Part shown: one piece after another, positions 1 through 23,699 of the stretch
Layout of the letters: each line of letters starts with the position of its first letter
Position numbering within the stretch: position 1 is the first letter of the stretch
NCBI GenBank assembly: GCA_031763025.1
Contig: JASSKH010000023.1
Coordinates: 4,801,501 to 4,865,500 of the forward strand
Length of the DNA: 64,000 nucleotides
Source of the DNA: Macrocystis pyrifera
Lineage: Eukaryota > Sar > Phaeophyceae > Laminariales > Laminariaceae
Direction of reading: 5' to 3'
The notes under the pieces: model-generated
What the model saw: only the letters and a program-made list of their open reading frames with translations
Told to the model about the DNA's origin: nothing
Database searches by the model: none
Position numbers and translations under genes: made by a program

Positions 1-2828
1 CACTGCTTTTCCAGCTGCCGTCAGTGCATCACATCTGACGTCGTCGCATTCAACGAATGTTCTGGCCAAGCTTGGGACTGCAGCGCTTCTTCTAGATCTT
101 CTCACGATCATGTGAGCCATCCTTATCCGGGAGGCATCTGGTTTTGAAGTCAACTTTTTATTTATTTGTTTTTGTTTATGTTCCCTGTTTCTCGTCTCTT
201 TCGTTCTTCTTGCTCTCTCTTTTCTTTCGTTTTTTTCTTCTTTTTTTTACGAACCTGCGTTACTGAGTGCGTTTATAGTGTAGAGCGTGACAAGCTGCCT
301 AGTGGCATAAGTAGGCGCTTCTCCCCTCCCAGTATAGGTGAGTTGACGCTTCTCCCCTCCTAGTAGGCACCGTCAAATCGCACGTGCAAGTACGTACGTA
401 CAACAAGCTCTGTTGTTCTTTCTTAGTAAGTACTTGATATATAAGTACTGGTGCTAATAGCAGTATGATGATCGAGGTTTGTTTTTTCCGCTCCCTATAC
501 CCCGTCTCCGCCGTGGAATGACGAGGTCGATGACCTCCACGATACGTGATTCCACGTGGTTGAATGCACCTGGAGACCCCCCAAATGACCTCGTGCTCAT
601 CGCACAAACCAAGCAGCGTTTTTCTTTGTACCCCTCCGCCTCGATATGCCCGCCCTTTCACAGGGAATGCACGTAGTAAGTACTACTGTAGGTGGAACTA
701 CTGGCACATTCTTGCCCGCAGACATTTTGTCTGCATCTTCCGGTCTATACCCGTGTTGTATGGGATTTGACCCTTGCCACGACTACAAAGAAGCTGCTAT
801 CGTACTGATAGGACAACCACGCAGCAGTACGTACCGACACCTTATTCTTTGGTACGTGATATGTATGCCGGTGGTGTGACCTACTACGCCATCGTTAGTA
901 TACGCATCTGTATGCAGCGTACAAACGGCTCGACCATAATTGCGAATTGTATCCGCTTGTATCCATCGCATGGAATATTCGCCTGCGAGTTCTTGAGAGG
1001 CCATTATTATTTATTTATTTATTTTTACCTGATACGAGCAACGGTATACGTATTGACTGACCTCACTTGCGACCCCCTGATAGCCAGAAGAATCATATAT
1101 ATATTTTTTATTATTTTTTTTTTTTTTTCATGCCCTTTGGTTACCGGATTTCAAGCCATATACTGGCCTACAGAGACTGGTATACGAGCGAGATACAAAT
1201 AGTGAATAGTGGTACCATGGTACGTAGTAATAATATTACGTATGTAGTAGCGAAAATTCCCGTGAACCCCCCCTCGTTCCCTGCCATATATTTAGGTAGC
1301 CAAACGATGCACAATTGGGTCGGTCCCCCCGTCTCGATGTGATGGAGTCGCACATCCATCGTATAGGAACGCATATACTCGCAGACGAATCTTGTATGGT
1401 TGCACGTAGTATTAATAGCTCTTTTGGGACCAGCGTACATATGTGCACCCCTCTTCAGATTGGCCCATCCTTACGCTGCTTCTACCCTACGAGGTACAGA
1501 ACAAGCGGCATGATGCACCTCCTGCGGAGCCTTTACTATATAAACAGGGCGCATGTTGCCGAAAATGACCAGATTTCTGCTACCTTTTTTGCCCCACCCC
1601 CACAGCCTGTAGGATACAAACAACGGCCGTTATTTCCATTTTTTTTGTTTTATTTTATTTTACTGCTGCTCTTTACGTGCACGTTTCCCAGCGTTAACGA
1701 CATAACACAGCTTTATGATGCTGAACCTTGTCCCACGGCTGCCTGTGTGCATCTAAATTTCTCAGTTTTACACCAGAAATAAGGTATAAGCTGCCTACGT
1801 GCACGATCTTCAGCGTTAACGATACAACGAGGCTTTACGGCGCCCAACCTTGTCTGACTACTGCTGTTTACGCCTACCCCCCCCCAGCTGTACTACATTA
1901 ACAGAATGTACGATACCTGATCTGGTCCGAATATTTTGTTTGGTCGTGTTTGTTTTCCCTCCCTTTCCCGTTTCGCTTTCGATTTTTGTTTTTTTTTTTT
2001 TTTTTTTTTTTTTTTTCCTCCACTTTTTAGCCAAAGCAGGGTAGACACTGTTCAAGTTTGTTACAAGTGTTATTTTCCAGCGCATCCCATCCCCACCCGC
2101 TTTTACAAATATGCAGGGTACAGGCTGCCTAGAACTGTAACACTACAAAGGTTACACAAACGAGTAACATATCATCTGGTTATCCCTTGTTTGTCCAGCT
2201 TCTCACAAAACCAGCAGCTGCCTGCTGCTCATATATGGAACATAATAACTGTGGCCCGGGCAGTGATCAGTTCCAAAGAGATGAACTAAATGCTGGCCAA
2301 ATTAAACAAAATAATATACAATTTTTCGCGGCGGATTAGAGTATTGGACCTCCCCACAGGAGCCAAATGATACCCTTTTCCACATTTTTACGTACCGGGG
2401 TCTATTTATTTATTTTTTGTTTTCCACTTGTGTTACCTCTACGATACCCTACGTATCTCACATCGTGTCGGACCTCGCGACGCCCCGAAATGCACCGGTT
2501 GCTGTCTGTTTTGCCACGGAACGACAAGCTGCCCACCGTTTAGGGAATCGCCCGATATTCTGTGCAGCTACTAAATAGTGCCGGCATGCTGCATTTTTTT
2601 TTTCCCCGACTCGACCTTCACATTTTCTTTACGGGTACTCTTATTTGTATCCCAACGAAAGGTCTTGCACTGCCCACGCTCAGTAAGCGTCACCCTGTTA
2701 TCATTACGAACATTGGGCATTTCAGACGGAGTTATGTTCAATTCTGTTCAACTGATATCACTTGAGTGACCCCGGCGCGACTACCGTCAATCAAACGCGA
2801 GGTGCCTGGCGCTAGTTAGATGCCCTCA
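1..2828. other. T-rich non-coding DNA, no gene seen
   Basis: No reading frame here has a recognisable domain. The stretch has T-rich tracts about every 300-400 bp (near 155, 225, 1010, 1115, 1640, 1990, 2405 and 2590). Short phrases resembling ACAAGCTGCCTA recur near 289, 1788, 2120 and 2525, which suggests a decayed repeat. Part of it may be the 5' LTR of the retroelement that follows, but I could not pair it with a downstream copy. Confidence 0.5.
1670..1870. repeat. Diverged tandem pair, period about 124 bp
   Basis: The segment starting near 1670 (TACGTGCACG, then CAGCGTTAACGA, CTTTA and CAACCTTGTC-like words) recurs near 1794 in the same order. The copies differ at many positions, so the duplication is old. 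Confidence 0.5.
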
Positions 2829-2830
2829 AC

Positions 2831-2838
2831 TATAAAAA
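2831..2838 (+). promoter_or_regulatory. TATA-like box upstream of the NADAR element
   Basis: TATAAAAA lies about 105 bp before a TTGGTATTGTAGCC stretch near 2937 that resembles a tRNA primer-binding site, and about 210 bp before the gag start. This spacing is what an LTR U3-R-U5 end would give. It is inference, since no matching 3' LTR was found. Confidence 0.3.
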
Positions 2839-3042
2839 TATCCTTCGACGGGCACTAAAATCGTGGCACGCACAACCTCAACACCCCCTATCGTACGTCC
2901 TTACCGTCACTCCTTTCTCTCTCCTAGATCGGTTTGTTGGTATTGTAGCCGCCTACCCTGATCCAAGCCTGGATCCACCCGCCCTCTCCATCCTCCACCA
3001 AACCTCTTCCCGCCCCAGTACAAGCGTTCCACCCGCCTAAAC

Positions 3043-5176
3043 ATGGCCGAGAAAGCTTCCTCCACCAACATGCCCGGCGCCCACTCCCCCGACGCCACCA
3101 ACCCCCGCGAGGCGAGGTATGCCGCAAGGGCCTCTCGCGCCACGGACGACGACACCCCCGGCTTCGAAACCATTCTGAGCGACCTCACGCTACACCCCAC
3201 CACACCGGGATCCTCTCCACTGGGAGCAGGTACGACCAGTGCCGTGCCTACCATAAAACCGGAGGTCTCCGCACAGGAAGCCTCCACCCTTGCTCTCCAT
3301 CCGGGGCGTTACCAAGGCGATCCCACGGCCCTCCGTGAGCGCCGTGCGGCCCTCAAAGCCCACCACGAGCAGCTCCTCCTTCTCGCGAAAGAGAGCGCTG
3401 ACCTCCTACTCGTGCTACCGCCATCCCCCACTCCCTCTTCGAACCCTTTCGACCCCACCTACGAGACTACAGCTGTGACCGCGACCACCACAACGCAATC
3501 GCAGCCGCTCGCTCCGCACCCGGACCCACCCTTTACGTCCGCCGCGATGTCTAGGACCACCACCCACCAGCCTCCCCAAAACCAAACTGGGACCACAATG
3601 TCCCAGGCACCATTTCCGACCCAACCCTCGCCAGCCCCCATGCCCACTGGGCACAGGCAACCGCAGACGTTCGGTTTCGAGTCCAATGACTGGGTTTTCC
3701 TGGACGCCAAGCTCCGCTGGATGCAGAGTACACGCGACCCGATAGCCTCGGATGTCTCGATAGCGGCACATCGCGTCTGGCGCCTGTTCACACCCGACTG
3801 CGACCCGTCGATCACCCTCGTTCTGGCCCGCGCCGCCACCGAGGGTGCCTCGTCCGAGTTCATCGGGGCCGCCCACACCCTTTTACTCGAGCTACGGTAT
3901 TTCCACTCCAACGCCGGCCGCGGCTACGTGTGGAACCCAACCGAGCCTCGACCCACTCTCCCGACACCCCCCAACCACCCGCCCCACGACGGACACGCCG
4001 CCGGCGATACCGTCCCACTCCACCTCGACAACTCCCACGACGACGACAGCGCCCCCCCCCGCACGAGCACTTAGCCTGAGGACAGAAGCCACTACGGAGC
4101 CCATGACGGAGGCGGAACGTCGTAGTGTCCGGCGCCTCTACGCCGGGGTCGATATGCGCAAGTTCACTGCGCTCGTGCGGTTTCCATGCCCGGACAATGT
4201 GGAACCCGCCGTCTACCTGGGCATGCTCCTCGCCAGCGTGAAACTCATCCTCGGCGAGATCCTGATAGTGTGCGACGACTCGGAGAAGCAGTCGTTTGAA
4301 ACACCTCCGTGGGTAGTGGGATGGGATGCTCCACTTCAAAGGTGTTTCCGCAAGGCGCTCTCGTCCCCCCAGGTCATGACATCGCCACTGCCTCGCCTCA
4401 TCGACGATTTCTTCGTCCAGGTGCGCCAGGAGCTCACCGTCGACAACACCGGACCGTCGGCATTCAAGAAGCTCCTACGTCTACTCACGAACCACTTCGA
4501 CGACGGCGACCAGGGCCGCGCCTTCGAGCAGCTCCACACCTTCGGCGTCCCAAATCTGACGGACTTCGCGACCTTCGTCCGTGCCTTCAAAGAACGTGTG
4601 TCCATCGCACAAGGCACGGAACGGGTCTTCAAGCCGAGCGATGCCATGGTCATCGAGATTGTACGCGGCACTACGGGCAGCCAATACCCGTCCCTCATGC
4701 CCACGCTTTATCCGGGGCGCCTCATGACCACCCCGCAGCCCTTCTCCTCGGTTGCCGACATGTGGGCAGCTTTCGAAGTGCTGGCGACCAACAAGACGCC
4801 GGCAATCAACGGGCACCGCTTCCACGCGACTTCCTCCGGCGGATTCGTCACGTACTCCTCCTCTCCACCGACCCCAGCGCGGCAGCAAACTCCGCGTGGC
4901 CCAGGTACCAACACAAGGGGGTCTTCCTCCAACCCGTTCGTCATGAACGTGGCCGAACAGGGGCGCGACCCGTTCTGCGAGGACGAGGCGGACTGGCCGC
5001 TGCGACACTACGAGGAGGTATACATGGTCACGACCACATTCGACCCTCAGACCCCAATCGCTCCGACAACTGGCGCCACAACAACGGCCGGTCATACGAC
5101 AACGGCAACTGACAGTCGCCAGGGCAACAGTTACATCGACAACGCATCGAGCCTGCCCCCTCGTCTTCAGCATTGA
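3043..5176 (+). CDS. gag-like region of the NADAR element
   Basis: The region opens with MAEKASSTNMPG and a long Pro/Thr/Ser-rich stretch. It continues into a helical, capsid-like part with FKKLLRLLTNHFDDGD and FATFVRAFKERVSIAQG, which resemble the capsid core of Ty3/gypsy gag proteins. I see no CCHC zinc knuckle, which many gypsy gags carry near the end; here the end is Pro/Thr-rich. The role as particle structural protein is inferred from its place before protease and RT. The start was chosen as the first ATG after the TATA and primer-site-like stretch. Part of a fossil element. Confidence 0.7.
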
Positions 5177-6235
5177 CGGTGCATAGCCCCCCGACCAATA
5201 CTTCCGCACCTGCCGCCCCCGCGAACATGCGGATGGGCAGCACCAACTCGAAGTACCCACCCGAACCAACGGCAGCCGGGCACCTTCCGCACCAACGGAC
5301 AAGCCGATGGTGGAGCAACTGTCGCAATCTCCACCAACAGCATCTACTGCGAGCACCCGAGGCTCCCAGGACGCACGAGTAAATCACGTGCACCACGCCT
5401 ACCCGACCCCTGCCCTCCAATGCCCCCCCCCTACCCCAGCCCATTTCACAGTCACTTGCTCAAGCACTGATCATCTTGCCCAAGTGATTGCCTTGAGGTG
5501 TGGGCGGGAGGAGGCCAAGACGCCGAGCCCCACCGGGATGCTCCACTCGACGTCTTCTGGCGGTGAGCAACGCTGCTTGCCGACTATTGCCGAGACCCCA
5601 GACATTGCTACCCTGGGAAACGTCTCGACGATTACGGCTACCAGCGGTTCCGGTTCACACGAAACTACTGTTTCGTCTACCGGGCCACCGCCCCCTGAGC
5701 CTGCCTCATCAAGGCCGCTCCATACGCGCATGTTCCAGCATGCGCGTATTCCTTGTGACAGCGTTGAACCCGCGAACGACGGGCTTCTTCCAGCTGCCAC
5801 GGTGTTGACACCACCGCTGTCCCTGAGCTCGAGGGACAGTCCCGTTTTGAATACGGAAGACTCGCGACCAACGTCGACCAGGGTCTGCCCTGAGCCCCCT
5901 GACCCGTCCTCCTCGCCTGCTTCGCGCAAAGCGTGGACACGGACCCCAGGTGTGGCATCCCCTAGCGAGTATGCCCCTGTTCTCCAAAAGTTGGACGATA
6001 GGGCGCTTGAGGGTCGTCCCGCCCGGCTTATAAGCCCCGGCGAGGACCGCCCCGGTACCTCGGCTTTGCCGAGCAATTCCCCCGCGAACACGAGGGTTCC
6101 GGCCAGCACCGCTCGATCGTTGCTGACTCTACCTCCGTCGACGCCAGGCGGCGATAGGAAAGATTATCGTCGCCCCCCACCCCCCCCGACACAAAAGACG
6201 CCATCAACTGCACACGTCACCGCCGAGGCCGCCTC

Positions 6236-6711
6236 ATCTTTCCACTTCTTCTGGGACTCCTCTTCGGTCTTTTCGCAGTGGTACCTGTGCGACATCGAAC
6301 ACGATGGCGTCACATACAACTGCGCTGAGCAGATGATGATGGCGCAGAAGGCCGCGCTCTTCGGGGACATCACAACTGAGCGCCGCATCAAAGCGACCCG
6401 CGACCCAGCCCGCCAAAAAGCACTTGGGCGAACCGTTTCCGACTTCGACGAAATGGTCTGGGAGCGACACCGCTACACCATCGCCCTCTACATTAACTTC
6501 TCCAAGTTCCGCCAACACCCGGAGCTACGGGAGGAGCTAATAGCAACCGGCGACAAGCACATCGCCGAGGCCAGCCCACACGACCTCATCTGGGGCATAG
6601 GCTTCAAGGCCGACCATCCGGACGCCTGTGACCCGACGCGTTGGCGTGGTCGGAATCTGCTGGGCAGGATACTGATGGACGTTCGAGCAAACCTCGGCGC
6701 CAATCGCTCCG
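6236..6711 (+). CDS. NADAR domain inside the retroelement polyprotein
   Basis: About 155 residues match the NADAR (YbiA/DUF1768) fold. They begin at FHFFWDSSSVFSQWY and carry YNCAEQMMMAQKAALFGD, DPARQKALGRTV, FDEMVWERHR, EASPHDLIWGIG and WRGRNLLGRILMDVR. Known family members cleave N-glycosidic bonds in riboflavin-pathway intermediates, or remove ADP-ribose from guanine as antitoxins to DarT1-type toxins. The Glu of the AEQ motif, the WGIG loop and the W-G-N-LG motif are all present, so this domain looks well kept. It sits between gag and protease in the same reading frame as the protease, which argues that it belonged to the element's own polyprotein. A late insertion is less likely. What it did there is unknown. 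Removing ADP-ribose from element nucleic acid or blocking a host defence are guesses. Confidence 0.9.
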
Positions 6712-6984
6712 CCCAGCCTCCATTTCCTCCCCATCTTCACGACCCGGAGCCAACACCCGCCCCCACCGACTCCACCCGGGTTTCCCCCACAGCCGACGGC
6801 ATCCACGAAACAAGCCCGACCCCTCCATGGCAACCGCCTACCTCTCCACTTGGGCCACTCCTACCGCCGTCTACCCCCGACGCCTACCCCAGCAGCCACT
6901 TTGCCCAAGTGTCCACCATCAACACCGCCACTCACAGCCACCTCCCTACCCGCCGCCCGCCGATACCGGAACACGGACCATGCC

Positions 6985-7440
6985 TTACAAGCGGCATCAT
7001 TACCGTCGACGACGCGTCGTTCACGACGAAAGTACTCGTGCACAGCGGCCCCACCGCCACTACGCGCCGCGAACTCGTGGCACTGCTCGATACCGGCTCG
7101 CCCCAGTCGTTTATCACCGCAACCGCGGTGGAACAACTGAAGGCTTCCCAGGCAGCCACCGATGCGTGCGAACGGCACAGTTCCCCCCGTTCATGGGGAG
7201 GTTTCGGCACTTCAGCCCCCCTCTCCACCTCCGTCTCCATCCGCTTAAGCATCCAGTTTATGCGCCTCCAGTCCCCCACTGCTGCCCTGGCAGTATGGGC
7301 CTGCGTAGTTCCTGCAGGAACCATGCAGAACCCCCATCCTTCTGGGACGAGACAGCTGGATGCGCTTCGAGCGACGCTCGTATACCACGCTCCAGCAACA
7401 GCCCACCCCCCCCCCACCACCTCCCCGGCGAACCCGCGGT
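6985..7440 (+). CDS. Aspartic protease of the NADAR element
   Basis: The active-site motif ALLDTGSPQSFITATAV (about 7078-7128) follows a beta-strand-like lead-in (SGIITVDDASFTTKVLV), as in retropepsins. A hydrophobic stretch (AALAVWACVVP) follows where the second half of the fold is expected. It would cut the gag-pol polyprotein. It lies directly after the NADAR domain and before RT. Confidence 0.8.
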
Positions 7441-8129
7441 GAGCTCTCCTTGAACCACCATGACCCCAACGGAGCCTCAGCATTCATTCCCGACGACCGT
7501 TCCACTGACGACGTCTACCACCTCCGATTCGCCGGCAACAAAGCTATATCGCTTTCCTCCACCCCCCAAGCTCGTTAAGGTCAACCTGGCGCGCCAGTCA
7601 GGCGCTCCAGCGTTTACCGGGAACTACATGGTGAACATGCTCCCCCGCGAGAACCCACTCTCCGACACGGCCATTTTCGTCTCCGATGGATGCCAAACGG
7701 TCCCCCTATCTGGATCTACCGATCTCGAGCCGGGCGACCTCCTCGGAACCTCCTACTCCCCACTGGTACAGGTACCACTTTCCACCCTTGGACACCCTTC
7801 CTTGGCCCCTCCCCACCCCCCTCAAATTCCGGATGTACATGCCCTCCACGACAACATTCCCGTGGCCGACCAGTGCCCATCGACAGATGACCCTCCTACC
7901 GCACCACAAGCCCCGTGCCCACAACTCCTTGCACGCCTCAACACCGACCAACGGGACAGCTTCCTCGACCTCTGGGAACGTCTGCCGTTACACCTACGCG
8001 ACGTCAACTTCGACCTGCACGGTTCTGGATGGACCCCGTCGGTGATCACCAACCTGGGAGACGTCCTCTGCGAGTTCCAGGACGTTTTCTCCACCTCAAA
8101 AACCGACTTCGGCTCGTGCTCGCTGATTC

Positions 8130-8900
8130 CGTTCAAGATCACCGTACCCCCGGGCAGCGCACCGGTCACTTCCCGCCCCTACAGGATCAACCCATCCTCG
8201 CAAAGAAGGCAGACGCGGTATTAGACCAGTACCTGGCCGCCGGCCTGATCCAACATTCTACGTCGCCATACTCAAGCCCTATGGTGGCCATCCCCAAAAA
8301 GGATGGAGGTGTCCGGATTACGATCAACTACAAAGAAGCTCAACGCCATCAGCTCCCTCGGGCAACTCCCCATCCCCCGCGTCGACGAAGTCCTCGACTC
8401 CTTGGGCAAAGGTCGCATCTTTTCTCTCTTCGACCTGGTCTCCTCGTTCCACCAAATCACCATCGACGAGGACACCATCCCTTTGACGGCGTTTTGCACT
8501 TCCAACCGGCTGTTCGAATGGCTTGTTATGCCGCAGGGAAGCAGCGCCTCCCCGGGCTGGTTCGTGAAGGTCATCAACGAGGTCATCAAGGGCCTGGAAC
8601 GCGTCGCCGCGTACCTCGACGACATCATCGTCTTCGACCCCGACCCCACCGACCACGTCGCCAACATGAGAACCCTCTTCGCACGCCTCCGGAAGCACCA
8701 CCTCAAACTCTCCCCCGCCAAGGCCAAAATTGGCGCCACCACCGCCGATTTCCTGGGACACACCATTTCCGCTGGCGGCTACAGCCCAAATTCCGACAAG
8801 GTCGCCGCCCTCACCAGAATGCCCATGCCGACCGACAAGAAGCAAGTGCGCTCACTCCTTGGAGGCATCAACTACTACGGCAAGTTCCTGCCAAACCTTT
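8130..8900 (+). CDS. Reverse transcriptase of the NADAR element
   Basis: Ty3/gypsy RT blocks are visible in order. They are a PPGSAPVTSRPYRI lead-in, AGLIQHSTSPYSSPMVAIPK followed by KDGGVRITINY, FSLFDLVSSFHQITID, FEWLVMPQGSSASPGWF, and the catalytic box YLDDIIVF near 8611-8636. DFLGHTISAGGY and the VRSLLGGINYYGKFLPNLS connection segment follow. The pattern is typical of gypsy rather than copia elements. Confidence 0.9.
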
Positions 8901-9024
8901 CTCGACGTCTGCGCCCCATCAACGCTCTACTCAAGCAAGGCGCGACGTTCGACTTCACCCCCTCCATGGAAACCACCGTACGCGCCATTCTCCAAGAACT
9001 TGCCGAACCGCCTATCCTCGTCTA

Positions 9025-9345
9025 CCCCGACTGGGACGCCGTCGCCGACAACTCCCGCCCCTTCCGCCTCTACTGCGACGCTAGCATCGACGGCTTCGGA
9101 GCGACCCTTGAGCAAGAGCAAGCCGACGGCTCAGTCCGCCCCATCCTCTTCATCAGCCGTGCCACCCTGGACTCCGAACGTTCATGGACACCCCTCGACC
9201 TCGAGGCCGGGAGCATCGTGTGGGCGATCAAACGCCTCCGCGGACACTTATGGTCCACCCGCTTCCAGATCTACTCGGACCACAAGGCGCTCGAGAACAT
9301 TGCCAAGGTCGGCGAACATAACGCTCGTGTCGGCGATGGCTCGAG
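9025..9345 (+). CDS. RNase H of the NADAR element
   Basis: FRLYCDASIDGFGATLEQ carries the first catalytic Asp. RPILFISRATLDSERSW and LEAGSIVWAIKRLRGHLW carry the conserved region with Glu, and FQIYSDHKALENI carries the later Asp. This is the Ty3/gypsy RNase H layout directly after the RT connection. Confidence 0.85.
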
Positions 9346-10359
9346 TTCCTTTCAGCATACACCTACACGCTGGAATACCGGAAGGGCACGACCAACGGCA
9401 ACGCCGACTTCCTCTCCCGGCTTCCCCAACCAGCCACCGACGCCGACCGCACCGGACGCAACCGCCTCACTGGCCCCGACACCGTCGGCATCTACCTCAT
9501 CCGCCCCTGCGGCTTCGCGCCGAACGACCCTTCCACCCCGGGTATCGGCTTGGGTGGGCTCGTGTCCCCCCCTTCCAGACCCATCCCGACCGTCCAGCCG
9601 CTCCCCTTCACTGACGACGACTTCCGCGATTTTCGCCTACTCGGACCACGTATGGAGCACCCCACCCTTTCCCCCGCAACCCACACCTTCATCGGGCCTA
9701 TTGCGACCAGCGACTCCACCACCGGACAGCTTGCCGGCACCGAGAATGCCGCCGTGAACACCGGAGCTCCTCCAGGCTCGGCTTCCATGCCGTCCGTCGT
9801 CTCTCCGCCGCCCACCATTGGCGCCACGACACCAGCCCTTTCAGGTCTGATATCTTCTCGGACCCGCCATCGCGTCGCCGCTGCCGCGGGAACCCCTCGG
9901 CCCACAGCCGACTACCGGTTTGGACGCCGACCGCCACCCAAGCCATCGGCGCCCACCACGCAAAGACCGACCCCTTTAACAACGCCCTCGCCGCCGGCAC
10001 AAACACCACCGTCAGTGCCCCTTCCGGAGCCCGTCGTCGAACCCGATGATGACCCCTACCTCCTCGCCTGCGTCGAGCACTACACCTACAAAGACTGGGC
10101 GCGAGAACAACGCGCGGAGCCCCTGTGCTGCGCCACCATCCGCTTCCTGTCGTTGGACTCCCCCAGCCCCACGCCGCACGACCTCCTGGACTTCATCCCC
10201 CCGGCCCGGCGCCCACAACTTTCGGACGTCCTCACTCTTGCCTCCAAAAGCAAGCTACACCGTACCGACGACGAAACCGCCCTCCTGGTCCAACGACCAC
10301 CCACAACCTCATCCGGGAACAGCCTACCACCACCACCCGCCCCCTCTACCCCACGCGTC

Positions 10360-11260
10360 TACGTGCCAATGTTAATGCGCCCTTGGGTGCTGAACACATG
10401 CCACGCCACCACCTCTCTACACCTGGGAGTCACCCGAACGGTCCGCATGTTGGCACGTTTCTTTTGGTGGATTGGCATGGACGCTTCCGTCCGCTGGTGG
10501 ATCCGCCGTTGCCTTCAATGCCAGGCGCGGAAGACCTCCCGGCACACCATTCGTTGGCCCATCCTTTCTCTTCCTTTGCCCAACGGGCCTGGCATCACCG
10601 TCAGCGTCGACTACTTCGGGCCCCTGCCGCTCACGCCGCGCGGGAACGTCCACATCCTCCTCTTCACAGACCGCTTCAGCCGCCGCGCCGATATGTATGC
10701 CGTTTCAGCGGCGCAATTCACGGCCGCCGGCACTGCCGACATCTTCCTGAACGAGTACATCCCTCTCTGGGGGTGCCCGGTTACACTTCTCTCCGACAAC
10801 GGACTACACTTCACCTCCAAGCTTGCGAACATCGTCTACGAACGCCTTGGCATCCACAAGGTCAACACCAGCTCCTACCACCCCTGCACCAACGGCGGCG
10901 TCGAGCGCGTCAACCACGTACTGGCCCAAATGCTCTCTATGGTTGGCAACGAACAGCAGACCGACTGGGACGTGCTGCTCCCACACGTGTCGTCGGCCTA
11001 CAACAATTCCGTGAACGCCGCCACAGGGCTTGCACCTAACGAAATCCACATGGGCCGCCTTCCTCGCCTCCCGCTCTCGGTCTTCGAACCCGACAATATC
11101 GGTGGTCACCAAAGCCTGGACCGCGATCACCTGGTTTACATCAACCTCGCCACCGACCGACAACGACGCGCCTATTCCCTCGTCCGCGAACTACACCGAC
11201 TCACCGTCTCGCGTCTTCAGCGCCGCAATGCGCCCATCATGGCCGCCCTCCTAGCATCCC
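10360..11260 (+). CDS. Integrase of the NADAR element
   Basis: An HHCC zinc-binding N-terminus is visible (HATTSLHLG, then CLQCQARK). The DDE core follows: ITVSVDYFGPLP near 10595, VTLLSDNGLHF near 10780 and GGVERVNHVLAQML near 10893. The spacing and the VDYFGPL, SDNGLHF and VERVNH motifs are those of Ty3/gypsy integrases. It would insert the cDNA into the genome. Confidence 0.9.
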
Positions 11261-11654
11261 CCCCCCTTCACCGTAGGCGGCTGGGTTTGGGTCTACAACT
11301 CCGCCTCAACCATCCGCCAAGGCGTCAAAAAGGGCACCGACGCAACCGTCCTCAAGGCGAAGCTTTCCCTGAACTGGAATGGCCCCTTCAAGGTCCTTGC
11401 CGTAGGGCCGACGCCCGCCTCAAACACCCCCGACAATCGCCCCCTTCACGACAAACTACTTTTCCTCGACCTTCCATCGGACCTTCCGGGACGGGACTCC
11501 AAGCCACGCGTCTCCGTCCAACGATGCAAACCTTGCCGGAACCCCGACGACACCAGCGACATCCCCAAGCATCTGCCCGCGGACCTTACTGCATACGTGC
11601 TCACAGCTTCTGCCGCCAAGTCCCCCCCTTACCACGTCACCGTCGACGACGTCA

Positions 11655-11835
11655 CTCCTCCACCGGAACGCCTCGAGGTCGAGCAGATCACTGGCCATCA
11701 ACTCGTACGCGGCCGCGGCGGGGTCATCGCCGTTCTGTACGAGACTCACTGGACTGGACTTCTCAGCCCCTCGTGGGAACGCGAGCTGGACCTTCAACAC
11801 TTCCGGCGCCACATCCTACTTTACTGGTCACGATC
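11655..11835 (+). CDS. Chromodomain-like segment after integrase
   Basis: The segment PERLEVEQITGHQLVRGRGG, then VLYETHWTGL, SPSWERELDLQHF and a closing ILLYW, fits the chromodomain pattern: a V-E-I opening, a Y-x-x-W core with SWE, and a terminal helix. Chromoviruses carry such domains after integrase, where they are known to steer insertion towards marked chromatin. The aromatic cage is only partly visible, so call it chromodomain-like. Confidence 0.65.
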
Positions 11836-11984
11836 ACCAACCCAGCACCGCCAGACGAACCGCCTCTACCGCCAGATGCGCATCGGCGCCGCTCACCGCG
11901 AACTGGCCCGATCTCAGGGACAAATCTTCCTCGCCCCAGGCTACGCCTTGGTCTCCCGCAGCCTTTGGCTCCACAACTTCAGCA

Positions 11985-12225
11985 CCACCATCCTACCCTC
12001 CGGAGCACACATATGGTACAAGGCGCGCGACGGCCTTTGGTGGCTGGGCAAGGTCGCCCACGGCTCACCCCCTGACGCCTCTTCGGGAACTCCGCCGGAG
12101 TCTTCACCGGGAAACTCCTACATCGTCCGGTTCCTGGACGACCCCGGCCCGATCAAGATCGACCTCCAACCCGCCCGCTACACTACAGCACGGAACGCCG
12201 TATACGGATCGTGGTGTCTTCAACG
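11985..12225 (+). CDS. Tudor/PWWP-like tail of the polyprotein
   Basis: Following the chromodomain-like segment, GAHIWYKARDGLWWLGKV and, after a Ser/Pro linker, SYIVRFLDDPGPIKIDL look like the two beta-strand pairs of a Tudor/Agenet/PWWP-type chromatin reader. The region closes with ARYTTARNAVYGSWCLQ. The assignment is by pattern only and no close family member came to mind. A second chromatin reader at the end of a gypsy polyprotein would be unusual. Confidence 0.4.
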
Positions 12226-12316
12226 CCATGGGAATGGGAGCCTAGCACGTGGGGTGCTGCGGAACTCTGATGTGTCCCGCGGAACCCCCACCGTTTCCAC
12301 TCCCCCCCCTGGTTAG

Positions 12317-13920
12317 CCTTAGTTTAGTCTTTTGTTAGTTCTGGGTATTTGGTTCTGGTTAGTCTACAATATCTTAAGGGTAGTTCTTCAGGGTTAGTCT
12401 TCAATAGTCATCAGCAGTCATCTTCTTGGGAGTGTTTGTTTCCATCTACCGCCACCGGTATCGCTTGACCGACCCCGTGTTGGCTACCGATCCGAGGCCG
12501 TGTATGTTTCTTTTTTTTGGGTGTGTTTGGGAGTATCATCGTCCCCCCCCCCCCCCCCCCCCCCCCCGTTTGTTTTTCTTCTTATCGCCTACGGCTCCGT
12601 GTAACCTCCTTATGTTCAGGCCACTGACTCGTAGCGATACCTTCATTTGCATTTGTGTTTGTACTCCACTAGCCTACAGCCAATTATCGGCGATATCACG
12701 CCGAGGTAAAATCGTGTTGTAGCCTGAGCTGTGCTCTGACCTTAGTCGACTTCCGCCGACCCGTGTTTCAGACGGTCCTCGAGCTAAGACTATATCGAGC
12801 TTCCAGCTCACCCGTGTTTCTTCCATGTTTGACAAGTAGGGTCCCGATAGCATTGCCGCCCCGGAAGGCCGCTGAGTTATCGGCCATACATATGCGGTTC
12901 GGACACGATCGATCTCTCCTGACCTGTGTCCAGCTTTTTGTCTGTTTTCTGGTCCCGATGGTATTTCGTTTTCTCTTTCCCTTTTCTTCTTCTTTCTTTC
13001 TTGTCCGGTATCCCGCACACCCCCTCTGTCCTCTGGCAAACGACACCACGTTTAATGTCGCCCCGGTTGACCGAGTTGCACACGCTAGTTTTTGGGCCCC
13101 GCACTATCTACAACTTCGAACTGCACGCATTAGGCCGATTTTCTTGCGGATTTTCTTGCGATTTTCTTGCCGCCACCGTCTTTGAGTTTGGTTTTGTTGA
13201 GTTGGCTACCTTGCTACGTTTGCTAGTTTTGTTCACACCACGAACAGGTCTCCCAGACGCCGCGTTGTTTGTTGCGTCTCTCGGCTTTAGTAATCCCTAG
13301 TGCACGCAGCCCTCATAGCACTCTAGCTGTGTCCCTTCTGTCTCGCGTGATGTCTACCATGTTAGGGCCTTCGCCACAAGACAAGGCATGGGGCCTAGCG
13401 GATATGGATATATATATATGTTTTTGAATTGTGATCGCTGTCTCCTTTTTAGAGTTTCCTCGTTCGCCAACCCGGTTCAGCGAACAACCCTTTCGTACTT
13501 CCTTGGGCCCCAGACAATGGCTCCAGTGAAACGCTTGTACGTCCTTCTTTTGCCTTCATTTGGGTCTTCGTTTTCTTCTTCGGCCTTCGCTTCGGTTTCT
13601 GCCTCATTTTGCGTTCGTCTTTCTTTGTTTTCATTTTGGGTAATTTTTCCTTGCGCCTCTGCTATGAGTTCTGTGTCTCCCTCTGAGTTCTGTGTCTCTC
13701 TCTCCTTTAGTCTCCCTTTCCGTGGTTATTCGCAGCGAACACCCCCTCTTCGTAGTGTTTGGGTTTTATTACGAGGTGTGGGGGGATCTATAGCCTCATT
13801 TCTTTTGTTTCGAATAGCCGCATCTTCGACCACCTTTTTCTGGCCGTTCGGGATGAACTTTGTCATCACCCTCCGACCATCTTGTGGTCTGCATATACGA
13901 CTATTCAGGGTGGGCTAATG
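12317..13920. other. Downstream region of the NADAR element, no gene seen
   Basis: The stretch is T/C-rich with GTTAGT-type repeats near 12320-12410, a C25 tract at 12543-12567 and no reading frame with a known domain. It probably includes the element's 3' untranslated region and possibly its 3' LTR, but no direct repeat with the upstream flank could be found by eye. Confidence 0.4.
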
Positions 13921-14405
13921 TGATATGAGTAGAGTATTCATGGGCTATAGATATAGATAATACGTTGCAGTCTTGTAGTTTCACGAATACGAGAATAATC
14001 CAAAGAATGGATTAACCCGGCGGATATTCCGTTAGTCGAGAGTATCGTTATTTTAGGAATGTTCCCTAGGGCGGATAGCCCGTTAGACGAGAGTAATGTT
14101 CCTTGATGCAGATAGGACTACGAAGTGAGAAGTTCTTATATTAGCAGAAGAACGATCGGTAGCCATAGGAAAGTTCTGTTGGAGTACATCAGATAAGAGG
14201 AATTTAGGAGAGCTTGTGGCGTGGGGTGGGACGAGTATATCTGGGCGTCGAGTCTCGCCCCCCTACCTCTCACTTCTCTACCAGAGCACCTCCTCAGCTC
14301 TCGCCATCAATAAGAAGATCTAAATCAGAAGAAGCGAAGCACTGCTTTCCAGCTGCCAGAACAACCTGCGTCCCTTGCCACTACCCTTACCACTACCCTA
14401 GAGCC
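13921..14405. repeat. LTR-like sequence, not assigned to an element
   Basis: Two related units (GCGGATATTCCGTTAGTCGAG near 14030 and GCGGATAGCCCGTTAGACGAG near 14073) recall U3 enhancer repeats. A TATA-like GAGTATATCTGG near 14231 and a polyadenylation-like AATAAGAAG near 14308 follow. The stretch abuts the end of the minus-strand gag-protease block. It could be the LTR of either neighbour or a solo LTR. Confidence 0.35.
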
Positions 14406-14406
14406 G

Positions 14407-17392
14407 TCACCGCATCACATCAATTAGTGCAGCAGTGGTTTTGGTCGGTGCTGTCACCGATTCTACTTGTACTGTCATCTCACTCTGAGGGGGGATGCAG
14501 CATTTGTTTTTCAAAAACACCGGTACGGGTTCGACATTATTATTAATTGAGACCACGGAGCACTGAGCTGTCGCAGTGTTCTCGGGGTGTGTCGTAGCAT
14601 TCACTCTACGGTGAGATGCTTTTATTTTGACTTGAGATGTTTTGAATGACAATTGCTCTGTACTCCAATCGAGCACGCCGCCGAAGGCGTTCATGATAGA
14701 GTTATCGAGTAGCATAATGTCTGGCCCTAGAGAGGGCAATACAAACGCCTCGACTGGTAGGGTAATATCTCCTAGCGTCAGTTCAAAGCGAACGTATCCT
14801 AAAATTTTGAGAGGTGAACCATCAGCACTGCTGAGGTTGATCGCTCCGGCTGGCACTGCAAAAATTTCAGTGTCTTTCATTGTGGGATGTGTCTGGACGA
14901 AGTTAACAGAAATGCACGGTACATCGGTTGCTGTGTCAATGGTGACATTGTGCGCAGGATGATTATTGACTCTGGCGTTTACTCGTACGCGTTTCGACGA
15001 CGAGCTTAAAGCGGTGGGATATTTTGGATACCCACTCATAGCCGACGCATGGAAAGCATCAAAGTGCTTTTCCCGGTTAGCGTCGCATGATAAAAAACCC
15101 TGATGATGATTTTTTTTCTCATTATTGCGGTTCACAGCAGAAACATACAAGGCTTGCGGTACCATGGAAGGTGAAAACGTAACACTTTGACGCTGACTAC
15201 TCTTCTCGACTCTGCTTGTTGTTTCTACGGTGTGTCCCACTCCATGCTGTACTGCTGAGACACTCGGAACCTGCTGCTTATTCAATAAGTCTGTTACAGT
15301 ATTCGACTGGTTGCCTGCATGTACGTGTTGTGCACAGGTGTTCGCCAGAGGGGTGGCTATCGTTTCGCGGCCACTTTTATCCCTCCTCTTATCACTAGGT
15401 CTACCGACGCTGGCTACGGTTACGCTAGCTGCTTGCGCTATCGTTTGCCCCGCGAGCTCGGTGGTCCTAGCCAACCTACTCCCCGAACCGGTTTGAGGAA
15501 ACCGGCGCGGGCCTCCTCATTTATCTTTCTTACTGAGTACCCACCCCTTCTCCTCATGCGCCTTAGCCAAACGGCACTCGGGGCGCGAGTGGGAGGTTCG
15601 GTGCCGACACATAGGGTAGTCGCATTCGGCCCCCGCCGCTACCGTGGCGTGACGGGACTTAGAGCGGTCTACGCTCACCGACCTGCCGCGCTTCTCGGCC
15701 GAGCCGCGGGTGTCCTTTGCAAAGGTGACCCGTTGGGCTCGCCCTCGTCCTGCTGTCAAGTTGGACACGATGGCTTTCTCGATGTTTGCCATCGAGGTAA
15801 TCAACTGTCGATCAGGACCAGGGGAGGCACCGGTGACAGCGGATGCGTACGTAGTCGGGGGTGGGGTGGGGGTTCCGCGTAAGGCGTTCGTCTCGTGTTT
15901 TTTAGCCCGAGTACGAGATGCTTGGTATGTGAGGGAGGGGTCTTCACGGATGAGTTCAACTCGTATCGGGGGAATCAAGCCGTTTTCGAAGGTAGCCATC
16001 AGTGAGGTTTGCCACGCGTGCTTGTACGGCGAGACGTTAGGGGGAGCGGTGCGTTTGGCTTCAGCCAAGAGTCGTGCATAAGCTTGAGTTACTCTCAGTC
16101 CGTAAGAACCGACAGATTCACTACTCCCTTGCTTGAGGTTAGCGATGGTGCGAGCGAGCAAGACGATGCGGTTGACTGGGCTGAACAAATTTGTGAAGGC
16201 GTTGGTCCAGTCACGGTAAGAGCGGGGGGCTCGGATTTCGAGAGCGTCCTCATCATTGGTTAGTTCGGCCAGTTCTTTGTCGGTTCGCCACTCTAAGGTC
16301 TCGCATTGCAGCTGCTGCATGGTGGTGGGCTGCTTCACCGCTGACTAGGAGGGGGAGGTACTTGACTGCGTGGTGGTCTATAGTTGCATCCGGTGTATTG
16401 TCAGGTGAGTGTAAGCGGATGCGAGAGCGGAAGAGTGCCATGATTTCGGGCACGTCTTCCGAGGGTGATCCGACCAGTTTCAGTGAAGGCGGAAGGTCTG
16501 TCTTTTTGATGGAAAACTTTCCGTGATCAATCGGCTGAGTCGAGATTCTAGTTGACTGGCTATTACTAGTCTCTTCACTTACAGCAGAGGGTGTACGTGC
16601 TGGTTGTGTCACGAAGGAAGTGGCAGGTGGGGCTACAGCAGAGGATGTACGTACTGGTTGCTGCGAGGGGGCGTTGGTGGGTGGGGACACAGCAGAGGAT
16701 GTACGTGCTGCTTGCGTTACAGCAGAGGGTGTACGTGCTGCGGGCAAGGGCTGGCTAGATGGGTCGGGGGGGGAGTGGCTGCTGCTGTCAGAACTGCTCG
16801 ACCGCTGAATCGGGGTGGCCTGGTCAGTTTGTGTGGTTGCGGCCCCGGCGAAAGCTACATCGAGATTCTGTGTGGGCAATACCGAGACTCCTCTCACCTC
16901 TCCCATTTGGGCAGCTGTCGAGGTAATCAACTCTCCCATCTGGGCAGCTGTAGGTCCGTCCACGGTGCGTGCGTTCGCCGGCATGACCAGTTGCAGCACC
17001 CAGGCTGGCGGAGTGGTGCCGTTTAACATGCAGCGTCGAAGGCACGCTGCTGTTTCCAGGCGAACGGGATCACCGGGGGGATAAGGGTTCGGTCCCGCCA
17101 GAACGTCCTCCGCCAGTCCGGAGGCTGAGGCGGTCTCCTCAACGGGCCGTTCTTGGTGACTGCCGGGGTCGCTAGACCCCTCGTCGCCGAGGCTGGGGCT
17201 GGGCTCCTCGGCTGCCGGCTCCTCGGCTGCAGGCTCCGTTGCGGCAAGGTCCCCGTCGGCGGACGCTAGATCGTCGTAAAAATTGGCGTCCGTGTCTTTT
17301 TTTGAGGCCGCTTCAGCCGCCAGGCGTGTCTTCGTCCGCTGCTTCTTTGATCTCCCTCCTGAGCGTGGCATTGTTCCAAAGCAAGGTGGTCA
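14407..17392 (-). mobile_element. Ty3/gypsy fossil: gag and protease, reverse orientation
   Basis: Read on the minus strand, this holds a gag with an acidic and Pro/Ser-rich front carrying repeated RTSSAV/RTPSAV units. A capsid-like part follows (FTNLFSPVNRIVLLARTIANL, SSESVGSYGLRVTQAYARLL), then a zinc-binding CDYPMC-H-C knuckle. A protease-like domain comes next, with TIDTATDVPCISVNF and LGPDIMLLDNSIMNAFGG. Just before the gag start, the minus strand reads GTTACATTGGTGACCACC. This looks like an LTR end (..TTACA) followed by a primer-binding site, at about 17390. RT and integrase are absent. The element is broken and truncated, with about two interruptions in what remains. Confidence 0.8.
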
Positions 17393-17412
17393 CCAATGTA
17401 ACAGATTCTCGG

Positions 17413-19572
17413 ATACAAAAAGACCCGAACGACTCCGTATCGACCTCAGGGCAATTCAGTATCAGAACGCGTGCACTCCACCATGCACAACATGCTGGCC
17501 ATGCATAGCACGATAGATCAAAGCAACTGGGCATCACTATTACCGTTCGTCCAATTAGCTCACAACACTAGTTTTAGTGCTACGATGCATGAGACACCAT
17601 TTTTCTTGATGTTCGGGCGACAACCTCGACTTCCAGTCGACATAATTCTCGGAATTCCTCATGTAGGAAGAACAGCAGATACCGAAGAATTTGCACAAAA
17701 CACGCGGGACAATTTGCAGATTGCTTTCGAACTCGCACGCCGAAATCTTACCGAGCGTGCAGACAAACAAGCAGAAAATAACAGCAAACTCAAACCGTAC
17801 CCCGTGTTCAAACCTGGACAAGAAGTACTCGTGTACAAACCATACCAGGACGCGGATGGTCCCAACCCAAAACTGCTGCTACCATGGCGGGGACCGTATG
17901 TTGTCTGCTCACAACTATCACCAGTGGTATATAGAGTACGACTTACGAACGACACACGAGAAGTGTCAGTCCATCTTGCCCACATAAAGCCCTACCATAG
18001 ACGGGAAACACCGCCGGCACCTCAATTCGAGAAACTTGCGGAATTGTTTTTGGGGAAACCAATACCCCTACCCGCATTGGACCATCCCGATGAGGCTCAA
18101 CCTAAAATTGAGTCCTATTTCGTAGACAGGGTAGTAGACCATAGACGTGGGCCTGGCAGAAAAAGCCCCCACAACTACAAATACCGTCTGAGGCTGCGAG
18201 GATACGGCCCGGAGTCGGACCTCGAGTATCGCGCAGACGAAATACCCCAATGTCACGAATTAATCGCCGCATACCGAACCCAGAAGGGTTTGCAACTCGC
18301 GATAACCCCGCCCCCTTCGCCCCTTCTCCCCTCTCTCGGGAAACGGAAGCGTAAAGTAGGCGAGGAATGAGCACAAGTTGAGACAGCGCCAAATAAGTAC
18401 TCAATGCTCCGCGGCGTAAACAAAATCACGAACAAGTTGGCAAACACGGTTAACTCGGCTGTAGGCATATGAGTTAACAACGGTGATGAGAGTAGCACCG
18501 TCAGACATGGCAGACACACGTGTGTCTAATATGATCTGACGGGCACTCTAACCGGCATTCCGGTGGGAATAGCCGGGGCAAGGAGACGCACATAGAACTG
18601 TTGTACCCATCAGTAGAAAGCTGTAAGAGACATGACAATTCATGCCCAAGCCTACACTGAGTTAGGGACAAAACAACAAACCCACCGTCTTGTCACACAA
18701 AATTGTTCGAACCCACACACACAGGGAATGGGAGCCACGCGACTCCGCCCCGCTTAAAACGAGGTTACCAGTTGATACACTTGAATCAACCACGTCGACC
18801 TCGCGTGACCGCCCGACTAATCACGAAAATAATTAGGGTTCAGCTGCCCGTGGTTCTCAGAACAGCAACCACGGGAGCGCACCAATAGTACGTGTGGCCA
18901 CACGGAATTAGTGCGTTGAGATAAAGTTTGGAATTACCAAACAACTTCAGCATAAGCTGTCAGCGTGTAAGCTTGAAAATGTATGCATCTTCGCCGGACC
19001 GGTTTTTACCACCCGTGTTTACTCAATACGTCGGCTATAAGGAGTGGATGAACGCATGTGAAAGCTGCTGTGTTTCGATCAGATAAATCAGCACCCTGCT
19101 TCCTAACTAGTCATCCTCCCGATGACCGCCACAAGCCCATCCCTAGCTAAGATGGGCTTGCGGCGAATAAAGGGGGGGGCGATGTGGAAGCCAGGGTCGG
19201 AGATATCGTAGATCTCGTAATACGCACGCGCGAAGGACACGTCACCGGTCAAGCAATATCAAATCTCGGGTCACGAGCGGTCTCACGTCATTGACGGTGT
19301 AGACCCGTCCTCGGGAGATAAGCTATCGGGAAGATACGTAATCCGCCGCAGACTCTGGGGTAACCAAAAAGGTCCCCCACCGAGTCAGACTAGCTCTAGC
19401 ATCTCCTTGCTAAATATCAACGAAGAACTTTGCTCGGCTTACGTCGGCCGTAACGACGGCTACAAGGGACCCTCGCTCCGCGACCTCATCACGGCGACTT
19501 CTCCGCGACTTCTACGCTTCGACATCTCCGCGACGACCTCGGTACGAACGACTGGCGAAGGGACGACATTAC

Positions 19573-19631: not shown

Positions 19632-19783
19632 ATTAGGTATAGGCGATTGGCGTGTATACCAGCTCGTAGCTGGTGTGTACGCCTAGACTCGATTGCCGAT
19701 GGCCGGTCAATACACAGTCAAAATAAATGTTCGAGGCAAACGTATAGCCACTGTTAGGTTTTTAAGAAGTCTCATGTTTTGGT

Positions 19784-23440: not shown

Positions 23441-23699
23441 CTACGTACACACCTGGCGTGGGAAAAGAGCTTTCACTGGACCAACCGGACGAGAAGCTTT
23501 AAACAAGGAGGAGAAACAGCGTTTCCAGGCCATCACGGGCAGCGTAATGTACCTCGGACAGGTGGCTCGCTATGATATTTTGTACGCCGTCAACCAATTG
23601 GCGAGGGCGATGTCCAAACCGTCCAAAGCGCACATGGCGGCGGCAAAACACCTACTTCGCTACCTGGCCGGGACGGCGGATTTCTCCATCACATACAAG

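What the first reader, a model, noticed from the sequence alone, without database searches (positions are those of the whole stretch)
6236..6711. NADAR domain carried inside a Ty3/gypsy polyprotein
A well-kept NADAR domain (AEQMMM, WGIG, W-R-G-N-LLG motifs seen) lies in frame with and just before the aspartic protease, after gag. NADAR enzymes are known as N-glycosidases acting on riboflavin intermediates or ADP-ribosylated guanine, the latter as an antidote to DarT1-type toxins. I do not recall an LTR element built this way. If the domain is a standing part of this lineage, the element may have used it against nucleic-acid ADP-ribosylation by the host, or on its own nucleic acid. That function is inference.
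Basis: partly seen in the sequence, partly recalled or inferred. Interest (0 to 1): 0.88.

Follow-up and report, generated by a model that had tools for sequence, protein, structure and literature searches.

The report
NADAR enzyme domain in kelp retrotransposons
A family of virus-like jumping genes in giant kelp carries a built-in domain of an enzyme family that can remove ADP-ribose tags from DNA; this was already reported in a related seaweed, and here it is seen in many copies with its active-site residues kept, while its job is still untested.

Summary
Window 6246-6695 encodes a full NADAR domain (PF08719, E 6.6e-48) in one open frame with an aspartic protease (DTG at 7089), inside a 14,841-base Ty3/Gypsy element with near-identical LTRs and a TCAA target duplication. 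The genome matches the giant kelp Macrocystis pyrifera assembly.

It is no one-off: 150 of 150 scored genome hits pass the cut-off; three kelp families (A, B, C) carry NADAR before protease and RT; one copy has linker-NADAR-protease-RT-RNase H in one frame. In databases, 20 of 22 lineage proteins reaching far enough upstream carry it, against 0 of 7 other Gypsy proteins. NADAR and RT trees share 17 of 23 splits. ADP-ribose-binding active-site residues are nearly always kept.

The architecture is in print: PMC12477816 (2025) reports it for an Ectocarpus Gypsy lineage. New here: kelp families, co-inheritance with RT, fast B-C divergence, and RT-less copies that keep NADAR. Function, perhaps an ADP-ribose or other N-glycoside hydrolase acting with RT, is inference.

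The parts
1..33 (+). end of the 5' LTR (455 bases; it begins upstream of the window, at G000 C204:4801079)
   Evidence: 443 aligned columns with the 3' LTR, 0 mismatches, 2 gaps, besides one longer indel; ends ATCACA
34..2961 (+). long leader between LTR and gag frame
   Evidence: stretches from 376 on align in three other copies at 92.7-96.6% identity
2962..5176 (+). gag region in two frames (2962-4074 and 3764-5176); no Pfam match; no CCHC knuckle in this copy
   Evidence: 9-base C run at 4052 near the frame change
5187..7442 (+). 5' part of Pol: low-complexity linker, NADAR, protease in one open frame of 751 aa
6246..6695 (+). NADAR domain (PF08719), E39/K46/E119/D124/W127 in the numbering of 6213-6713
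6978..7331 (+). retropepsin-like aspartic protease, DTG at 7089-7097
   Evidence: E 0.052, below cut-off; matched in 40 of 40 fetched copies
7454..8224 (+). Pol spacer between protease and RT, similar in families B and C
8166..9337 (+). stretch missing with shared junctions in 15 of 21 fetched family-B copies (RT and start of RNase H); present in the window copy
8249..9391 (+). reverse transcriptase and RNase H
   Evidence: RVT_1 1.1e-25, RT_RNaseH 3.2e-24
9322..11250 (+). integrase: H2C2 zinc finger and rve core (rve below its cut-off)
11255..12313 (+). conserved C-terminal tail, weak chromodomain match
   Evidence: PF00385 E 0.069, below cut-off; 57-85% identity to ten lineage proteins; model unusable, pLDDT 40
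13919..14419 (+). 3' LTR, 501 bases, TGTGAT...ATCACA; followed by target duplication TCAA

Best explanation
This is a recently inserted member of a brown-algal Ty3/Gypsy lineage whose Pol polyprotein begins linker-NADAR-protease-RT-RNase H-integrase. Shown: the architecture, many copies, three kelp families, co-inheritance with RT, retained active-site residues. Inferred: the domain is an active YbiA-family hydrolase of N-glycosidic bonds to (ADP-)ribose; being part of Pol it is carried into the particle with RT; there or in the cell it strips ADP-ribose adducts (guanine is the known target of relatives) from the element's RNA, cDNA or proteins, sparing the element from host ADP-ribosylation or damage. 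The confidence given is for this mechanism; the anatomy alone is near certain.
For: Domain match; fold model pLDDT 96.3. My reading of the printed alignment to the solved Phytophthora NADAR 8bau puts window E39, K46, E119, D124, W127 on E43, K50, E125, D130, W133, which contact ADP-ribose there or, by mutation of E. coli counterparts, matter for guanine-ADPr removal (passages of PMC11543638). Kept in family B 21 of 21 at each site; family A E39 18 of 19, K46 18 of 19, others 19 of 19; family C 3 of 3; 17 database element rows: K46, E119, D124 17 of 17, W127 16 of 17, E39 14 of 15 covered. Single frame with RT. Trees congruent: 17 of 23 splits shared, 2000 label shuffles mean 0.28, max 5. Between families NADAR dN 0.40-0.46 while dS is saturated or above 2. 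20 of 22 informative lineage proteins carry it, 0 of 7 other Gypsy proteins. A myxobacterial YbiA-family NADAR rescues from its paired transferase toxin, and E. coli and phage NADARs of several subfamilies act on ADP-ribosylated DNA in vitro (passages of PMC11125620).
Against: No activity, expression or particle data. E. coli C7 NADAR and a Streptomyces NADAR were inactive on uracil-ADPr (PMC13036486 passages), so that RNA substrate is unlikely. E. coli K-12 YbiA does not act as antitoxin for DarT1 or YarT (PMC11125620), so family membership does not fix the substrate. I know of no host ADP-ribosyltransferase acting on element nucleic acid; my genome searches for DarT and PARP families did not complete. 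NADAR is less constrained than RT (between-family dN 0.40-0.46 against 0.11-0.20; within-family pN/pS 0.57 A, 0.63 B, 0.29 C against RT 0.50, 0.33, 0.27), and is 0.94 in six RT-bearing B copies. Some database fragments have changed active-site residues: of seven fragmentary relatives one has N at K46 and one S at D124.
Confidence: 0.45

Rival explanations
1. The domain is an active N-glycosidase but on small molecules: it destroys ADP-ribose-derived signals or damaged nucleotides/riboflavin-type intermediates in the cell or particle rather than adducts on nucleic acid.
For: E. coli YbiA acts on riboflavin intermediates (stated in PMC9303266 and PMC9503650 passages); PMC9503650 argues that phage NADARs mostly target small ADPr derivatives.
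Against: The same review argues that NADARs embedded with a polymerase in eukaryotic RNA-virus polyproteins target macromolecular ADP-ribosylation; the element NADAR is fused to RT.
Confidence: 0.25
2. The domain is kept for binding or spacing (RNA, cap complex, chromatin or Gag contact), with catalysis secondary.
For: SNA-3 of nematodes, an RNA trans-splicing factor, has three NADAR domains, in one of which the catalytic residues are not conserved (PMC9303266 passages).
Against: Active-site residues are nearly invariant across the element families although the domain has diverged to about 50% identity; in SNA-3 itself changes of such residues in domains 2 and 3 impair function.
Confidence: 0.15
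3. One-off capture, contamination or chance insertion of a host or bacterial NADAR gene in this copy.
For: Named non-element relatives among the best hits are mostly bacterial (e.g. Nannocystis, 53% identical).
Against: 150 of 150 scored genome hits pass the cut-off; 65 of 119 RT-selected copies have a listed NADAR upstream, and 7 of 11 unlisted ones probed do too; Ectocarpus and other lineage proteins carry it.
Confidence: 0.01
4. Origin: the NADAR was acquired twice, or swapped in the ancestor of families B and C, rather than once at the base of the lineage.
For: 66-row NADAR tree puts element NADARs in two well-supported groups, {B, C, P0001-3, P0024} and {A, Ectocarpus, others}, none of 200 bootstrap trees uniting them; in the first tree B and its close ENA relatives joined a metagenome protein, P0007, at 85 (P0007, a long branch, was later dropped); B-C distance is 1.08 for NADAR against 0.17 for RT.
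Against: Holding them as one clade is not rejected: lnL 9.46 lower, p-AU 0.34; an earlier 105-row set without family C even had a higher likelihood with one clade, lnL +21.6, p-AU 0.783. RT tree nests A, B, C together (84/82) inside the lineage.
Confidence: 0.35

Closest known systems
NADAR-bearing Gypsy lineage of Ectocarpus sp. 7 (e.g. Gypsy-12_Ec32; PMC12477816, Genome Biol 2025)
   Same: YbiA-family NADAR at the N-terminal part of Pol in all families of one Gypsy lineage (section 5); Ectocarpus sp. CCAP 1310/34 proteins with NADAR plus RT group with the kelp elements by RT.
   Different: Different host (giant kelp), different families; RT-less derivatives and fast NADAR divergence between B and C are seen here; the published chromodomain is only a weak match here. 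The published consensus itself was not compared: supplements could not be opened.
Tx1 LINEs of Crassostrea gigas with NADAR in ORF1 (named in PMC12477816)
   Same: A retrotransposon that carries a YbiA-family NADAR.
   Different: Non-LTR element, domain in ORF1; not compared here.
NADARs embedded with the polymerase in polyproteins of eukaryotic positive-strand RNA viruses (PMC9503650 passages)
   Same: NADAR as part of a replicase polyprotein.
   Different: RdRp, not RT; in the passages read NADAR is listed for phages, large DNA viruses and RNA viruses, not for retroelements.
Phytophthora NADAR 8bau and E. coli YbiA 2b3w
   Same: Family; active-site residues aligned to 8bau.
   Different: Stand-alone enzymes; E 3.3e-19 and 3.1e-8.
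DarT1-linked (BC4488-type) NADAR antitoxins
   Same: Superfamily; E and K of the active site.
   Different: They use aspartate where this domain has the YbiA glutamate.

Membership tests
NADAR superfamily, YbiA subfamily | PF08719 above the curated cut-off | tested here: met
   163.5 bits against 35.1
NADAR superfamily, YbiA subfamily | glutamate at the position of P. nicotianae E125 (BC4488: Asp; phage: His) | tested here: met
   window E119 aligns to it (read by eye); definition from PMC11125620/PMC11543638 passages
NADAR superfamily, YbiA subfamily | hydrolysis of an N-glycosidic bond to ribose or ADP-ribose | not testable with these tools
   residues kept; no assay
DarT1-linked NADAR antitoxin | aspartate in place of the YbiA glutamate and a neighbouring DarT toxin gene | tested here: not met
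   E119; neighbouring domains are those of Pol
Ty3/Gypsy LTR retrotransposon | two LTRs and target-site duplication | tested here: met
Ty3/Gypsy LTR retrotransposon | Pol order protease-RT-RNase H-integrase | tested here: met
   the protease match is weak and rests on DTGSPQSF plus conservation
Ty3/Gypsy LTR retrotransposon | Gag | tested here: inconclusive
   no Pfam gag match; CCHC knuckle in sister copy L039, none in the window copy
[quoted passage not shown]
   window copy: NADAR and protease in one frame, RT in another; family A copy L031: NADAR to RNase H in one frame
Ectocarpus-type NADAR Gypsy lineage | RT groups with RTs of Ectocarpus NADAR-bearing proteins | tested here: met
   22 lineage rows, all chosen for bearing NADAR and 5 of them Ectocarpus, against 6 other Gypsy rows, 100/100
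Ectocarpus-type NADAR Gypsy lineage | C-terminal chromodomain | tested here: inconclusive
   PF00385 E 0.069, below cut-off; not seen in P0161, P0159, P0162, P0172 at E up to 1; model unusable

The most novel reading that the evidence does not exclude
Brown algae modify retroelement nucleic acid (or particle proteins) with ADP-ribose as a defence, and this Gypsy lineage has carried its own eraser in Pol since before the split of kelps and Ectocarpus; the fast divergence of NADAR between families B and C, and its retention in copies that have lost RT, would then be traces of an arms race over that eraser.
Probability: 0.2. Interest if true: 0.88.

Novelty: new member of a known kind. Interest (0 to 1): 0.5.

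Why it matters
ADP-ribosylation of nucleic acids in eukaryotes has few known biological roles (recalled). A mobile-element lineage that has kept a putative ADP-ribose eraser fused to its reverse transcriptase while diverging into many families is a natural pointer to a substrate in the retrotransposition cycle, and the purified domain makes that directly testable. The architecture itself was published in 2025 with only a guess at its role.

Tried and rejected
Structure of the C-terminal tail: pLDDT 40, discarded. Searches for LTRs within the window found none because the 5' LTR lies mostly upstream of it. Intron reading of the 8166-9337 gap: rejected, none of the three possible registers of the junction gives GT-AG borders (sequence printed) and other copies have the stretch. 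Selection tests on copies picked by NADAR score are biased toward intact domains and are reported only as weak support. The RT-less junction count, DarT (PF14487) and PARP (PF00644) searches of the genome could not be had.

Rows dropped: from the NADAR trees, P0007, P0081, P0096, P0123, P0150, P0153 and also P0026, P0044, P0060; one search had taken 111 rows, not all 153 proteins then held; one search used 42 of 76 remaining non-element rows and left out some near-duplicate element rows (P0163, P0166, P0167, L021, L039, L064) and the fragments P0011, P0045, P0094. The rooted RT tree left out P0152, P0163, P0166, P0167. In one search the limits of 45% RT identity and 560 aa upstream were set after seeing the spacing.

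Full report
1. The observation. The window's open frame 5187-7442 (751 aa) contains a complete NADAR domain: PF08719, E 6.6e-48, 163.5 bits, residues 354-503, window 6246-6695. The same frame continues into ALLDTGSPQSF, the active-site region of a retropepsin (DTG at 7089-7097; Asp_protease_2 E 0.052, below its cut-off). RT and RNase H (in 8249-9391) and integrase (in 9322-11250) follow on the same strand. The AlphaFold model of the domain has mean pLDDT 96.3.

2. The element. The window begins inside the 5' LTR. Fetching the upstream DNA shows LTRs at C204:4801079 (455 bases, ending at window 33) and window 13919-14419 (501 bases), both TGTGAT...ATCACA, flanked by TCAA on both sides; 443 aligned columns hold no mismatch and two gaps, besides one longer indel. 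The element is 14,841 bases long. LTR identity points to a recent insertion. Three of its frame changes lie near C runs at 4052, 7406 and 11258; those around 8224-8249 and 9322-9391 do not. Whether they are real breaks or assembly errors I cannot tell.

3. The host. The genome holds 537,376,219 bases in 223 contigs. The giant kelp paper PMC10498591 (passages) gives 537 Mb, 223 contigs, 35 scaffolds plus 188 contigs and N50 13,669,674; contig C196 here is exactly 13,669,674 bases long. The identification is mine; the tool names no organism.

4. Not a one-off. A PF08719 search of the genome gave 1264 first-look candidates; the best 150 were scored and 150 of 150 passed the cut-off. I fetched 40 of these 150 with flanks. 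Protease is matched beside NADAR in 40 of 40. They fall into family A (19 copies: NADAR 45-51%, RT mostly 73-75% identical to the window, single pieces 70-81%) and family B (21 copies: NADAR 93-100%). RT lies in the fetched stretch in 19 of 19 A copies and 6 of 21 B copies.

5. Check by RT. A search with the window's RT scored 119 of 3799 candidates in three identity bands: 92-100%, 80-91% (family C) and 72-76%. Matching RT places to the listed NADAR places gave a NADAR 1.2-3.6 kb upstream for 20 of 37 (B), 26 of 38 (C) and 19 of 44 (A) RT copies, 65 of 119 in all; the NADAR lists are capped, so these are lower bounds. Of 11 unlisted RT copies probed, 7 have NADAR (L065, L067, L070, L071, L072, L073, L075), several of them broken over frames; of the other 4, one (L066) holds reversed gag sequence of another copy, two (L068, L069) hold no recognisable element sequence there, and one (L074) has the expected stretch displaced. 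Among the stretches probed I saw no clean element with intact flanks and no NADAR.

6. One polyprotein. In the family A copy L031 a single open frame of at least 1332 aa holds linker, NADAR, protease, RT and RNase H. A database search with its NADAR-to-RNase H part (1016 residues) returned 80 proteins. Of these 65 have RT at least 45% identical; 31 of the 65 show NADAR. Only 22 of the 65 reach 560 aa or more upstream of RT; 20 of 22 contain NADAR (one, P0198, only a 34-residue piece); the two exceptions (P0176, P0178) come from a EukProt and an Ectocarpus gene set, and I could not check their DNA. The 32 other rows without NADAR start too close to RT to tell. Of 7 other Gypsy proteins that reach as far, 0 contain it. 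Named carriers are from Ectocarpus sp. CCAP 1310/34; the rest are unnamed ENA, NCBI, JGI, lgn or EukProt sequences.

7. Co-inheritance. For 26 rows with both domains, NADAR and RT trees share 17 of 23 splits; 2000 label shuffles gave a mean of 0.28 and a maximum of 5. Distances correlate (15 representatives, Mantel r 0.43, p 0.0006; r 0.76 without B and C). NADAR changes about 1.8 times as fast as RT at the median, but 6.5 times between B and C. Rooted with six outside Gypsy RTs, the kelp families A, B and C group together (84/82) within the lineage.

8. Origin. Whether all element NADARs stem from one capture is open. A 66-row tree gives two well-supported element groups, the larger next to a group with the myxobacterial Nannocystis protein P0013 (85/74), but one clade is not rejected (lnL 9.46 lower, p-AU 0.34) and was favoured in an earlier row set. 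PMC12477816 also suggested horizontal transfer from blastp hits that were almost all bacterial. Vertical descent since the kelp-Ectocarpus split is an inference; transfer between algae is not excluded.

9. Active site. Aligned to 8bau (read by eye; the chain numbering there runs two ahead of the paper's, an offset that fits all five residues), E39, K46, E119, D124 and W127 match E43, K50, E125, D130, W133 of the Phytophthora enzyme, whose contacts with ADP-ribose are described in PMC11543638 (passages). They are kept in 21 of 21 B copies and 3 of 3 C copies; in A, E39 and K46 in 18 of 19 each and the others in 19 of 19; in 17 database rows K46, E119 and D124 in 17, W127 in 16, E39 in 14 of the 15 that cover it. 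Among seven fragmentary close relatives one has N at K46 and one S at D124. The glutamate at 119 marks the YbiA family rather than the DarT1-linked type (PMC11125620).

10. RT-less copies. In 15 of 21 fetched B copies the sequence jumps from about window 8158-8165 to 9336-9340, removing RT and the start of RNase H (in L048 the left side is a short piece ending at 8165). The shared junction means a copied, non-autonomous subfamily. It keeps NADAR and protease. Since the copies were picked by NADAR score, the absence of stops in their NADAR (0 of 15) proves little; spacer and H2C2 pieces of the same copies hold stops in 10 and 6 of 15, part of which may come from the frame mapping.

11. Selection. 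Between families NADAR dN is 0.40-0.46 with dS saturated or above 2, so the domain has been held far more than synonymous sites, though less than RT (dN 0.11-0.20). Within families pN/pS of NADAR is 0.57 (A), 0.63 (B) and 0.29 (C, three copies), against RT 0.50, 0.33, 0.27 and protease 0.48, 0.63, 0.30; it is 0.55 in RT-less and 0.94 in the six RT-bearing B copies taken apart. These are weak and, for A and B, biased.

12. Prior art. Two searches, NADAR with Gypsy and LTR and YbiA with retrotransposon, returned one paper each, PMC12477816. In the listings shown for NADAR with retrotransposon (20 of 104 papers), NADAR domain (15 of 15), NADAR with brown alga (10 of 80) and Gypsy-12_Ec32 or related terms (6 of 6) it is the only one that I recognised as joining NADAR to a retrotransposon. 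I read the first part of its section 5 and passages. [quoted passage not shown] Its main text has no occurrence of Macrocystis, kelp, Laminariales, Undaria or Saccharina. The kelp elements are therefore new members of a published kind. The library holds open-licence papers only.

13. Mechanism. Shown: domain, place, copies, co-inheritance, residues. Following from established work: relatives hydrolyse N-glycosidic bonds to ribose, including guanine-ADP-ribose (passages). Inferred: packaging with RT and action on element nucleic acid or proteins. Against a uracil-RNA substrate: two bacterial NADARs were inactive on uracil-ADPr. The most telling single experiment is the substrate assay of the purified domain.

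Noticed in passing
window 8166-9337 versus L019, L024-L027, L032, L033, L035-L038, L040, L044, L045, L048: A non-autonomous family-B derivative with a shared loss of RT and part of RNase H makes up 15 of 21 fetched B copies; genome-wide number not obtained.
   Followed up: partly
families B and C (window; L061-L064): NADAR differs about 6.5 times more than RT between B and C: a swap, or unusually fast change.
   Followed up: partly
L073 (G000 C212:1416910-1418310): A NADAR only 58% identical to family A and 48-50% to B and C, upstream of an RT in the 72-76% band: perhaps a further kelp family.
   Followed up: no
window 4744-5058; L035, L039, L045, L024 first 320 bases: Most fetched B copies do not align to the window upstream of 5059; L039 encodes a CCHC zinc knuckle with an Asn/Arg-rich tail there (the others show it split over frames). 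The window, L032, L036 and L047 share a different version.
   Followed up: partly
window 11255-12313: The Pol tail is well conserved in the lineage; beside a weak chromodomain match a second stretch around 12000-12190 looks Tudor-like by eye; no tool confirmed it.
   Followed up: partly
window 19769-24179 (+): Ty1/Copia element: gag_pre-integrs, rve, SH3_retrovirus, RVT_2 (rve is below its cut-off).
   Followed up: no
window 15523-16344 (-) and 17405-18364 (+): Fragments of other LTR elements: a weak Retrotrans_gag match (E 0.001, below its cut-off) and, on the other strand, an integrase C-terminus with a weak chromodomain match.
   Followed up: no
window 38536-59768, many places in both orientations: A dispersed repeat of about 105 bases, mostly 80-94% identical, perhaps a small non-autonomous transposon.
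   Followed up: no
proteins P0121-P0149: These unnamed-source proteins join NADAR with one or more of the Pfam domains PF10021, PF03747, PF14216 and PF01661 (Macro), several of them likely ADP-ribose-processing domains (domain functions recalled).
   Followed up: no
Ectocarpus Esi0017_0056 (PMC7922944 passages): A stress-induced Ectocarpus protein with a DUF1768/NADAR domain whose best hits were prokaryotic; 'transpos' does not occur in that paper's text, so a link to an element was not discussed there.
   Followed up: no
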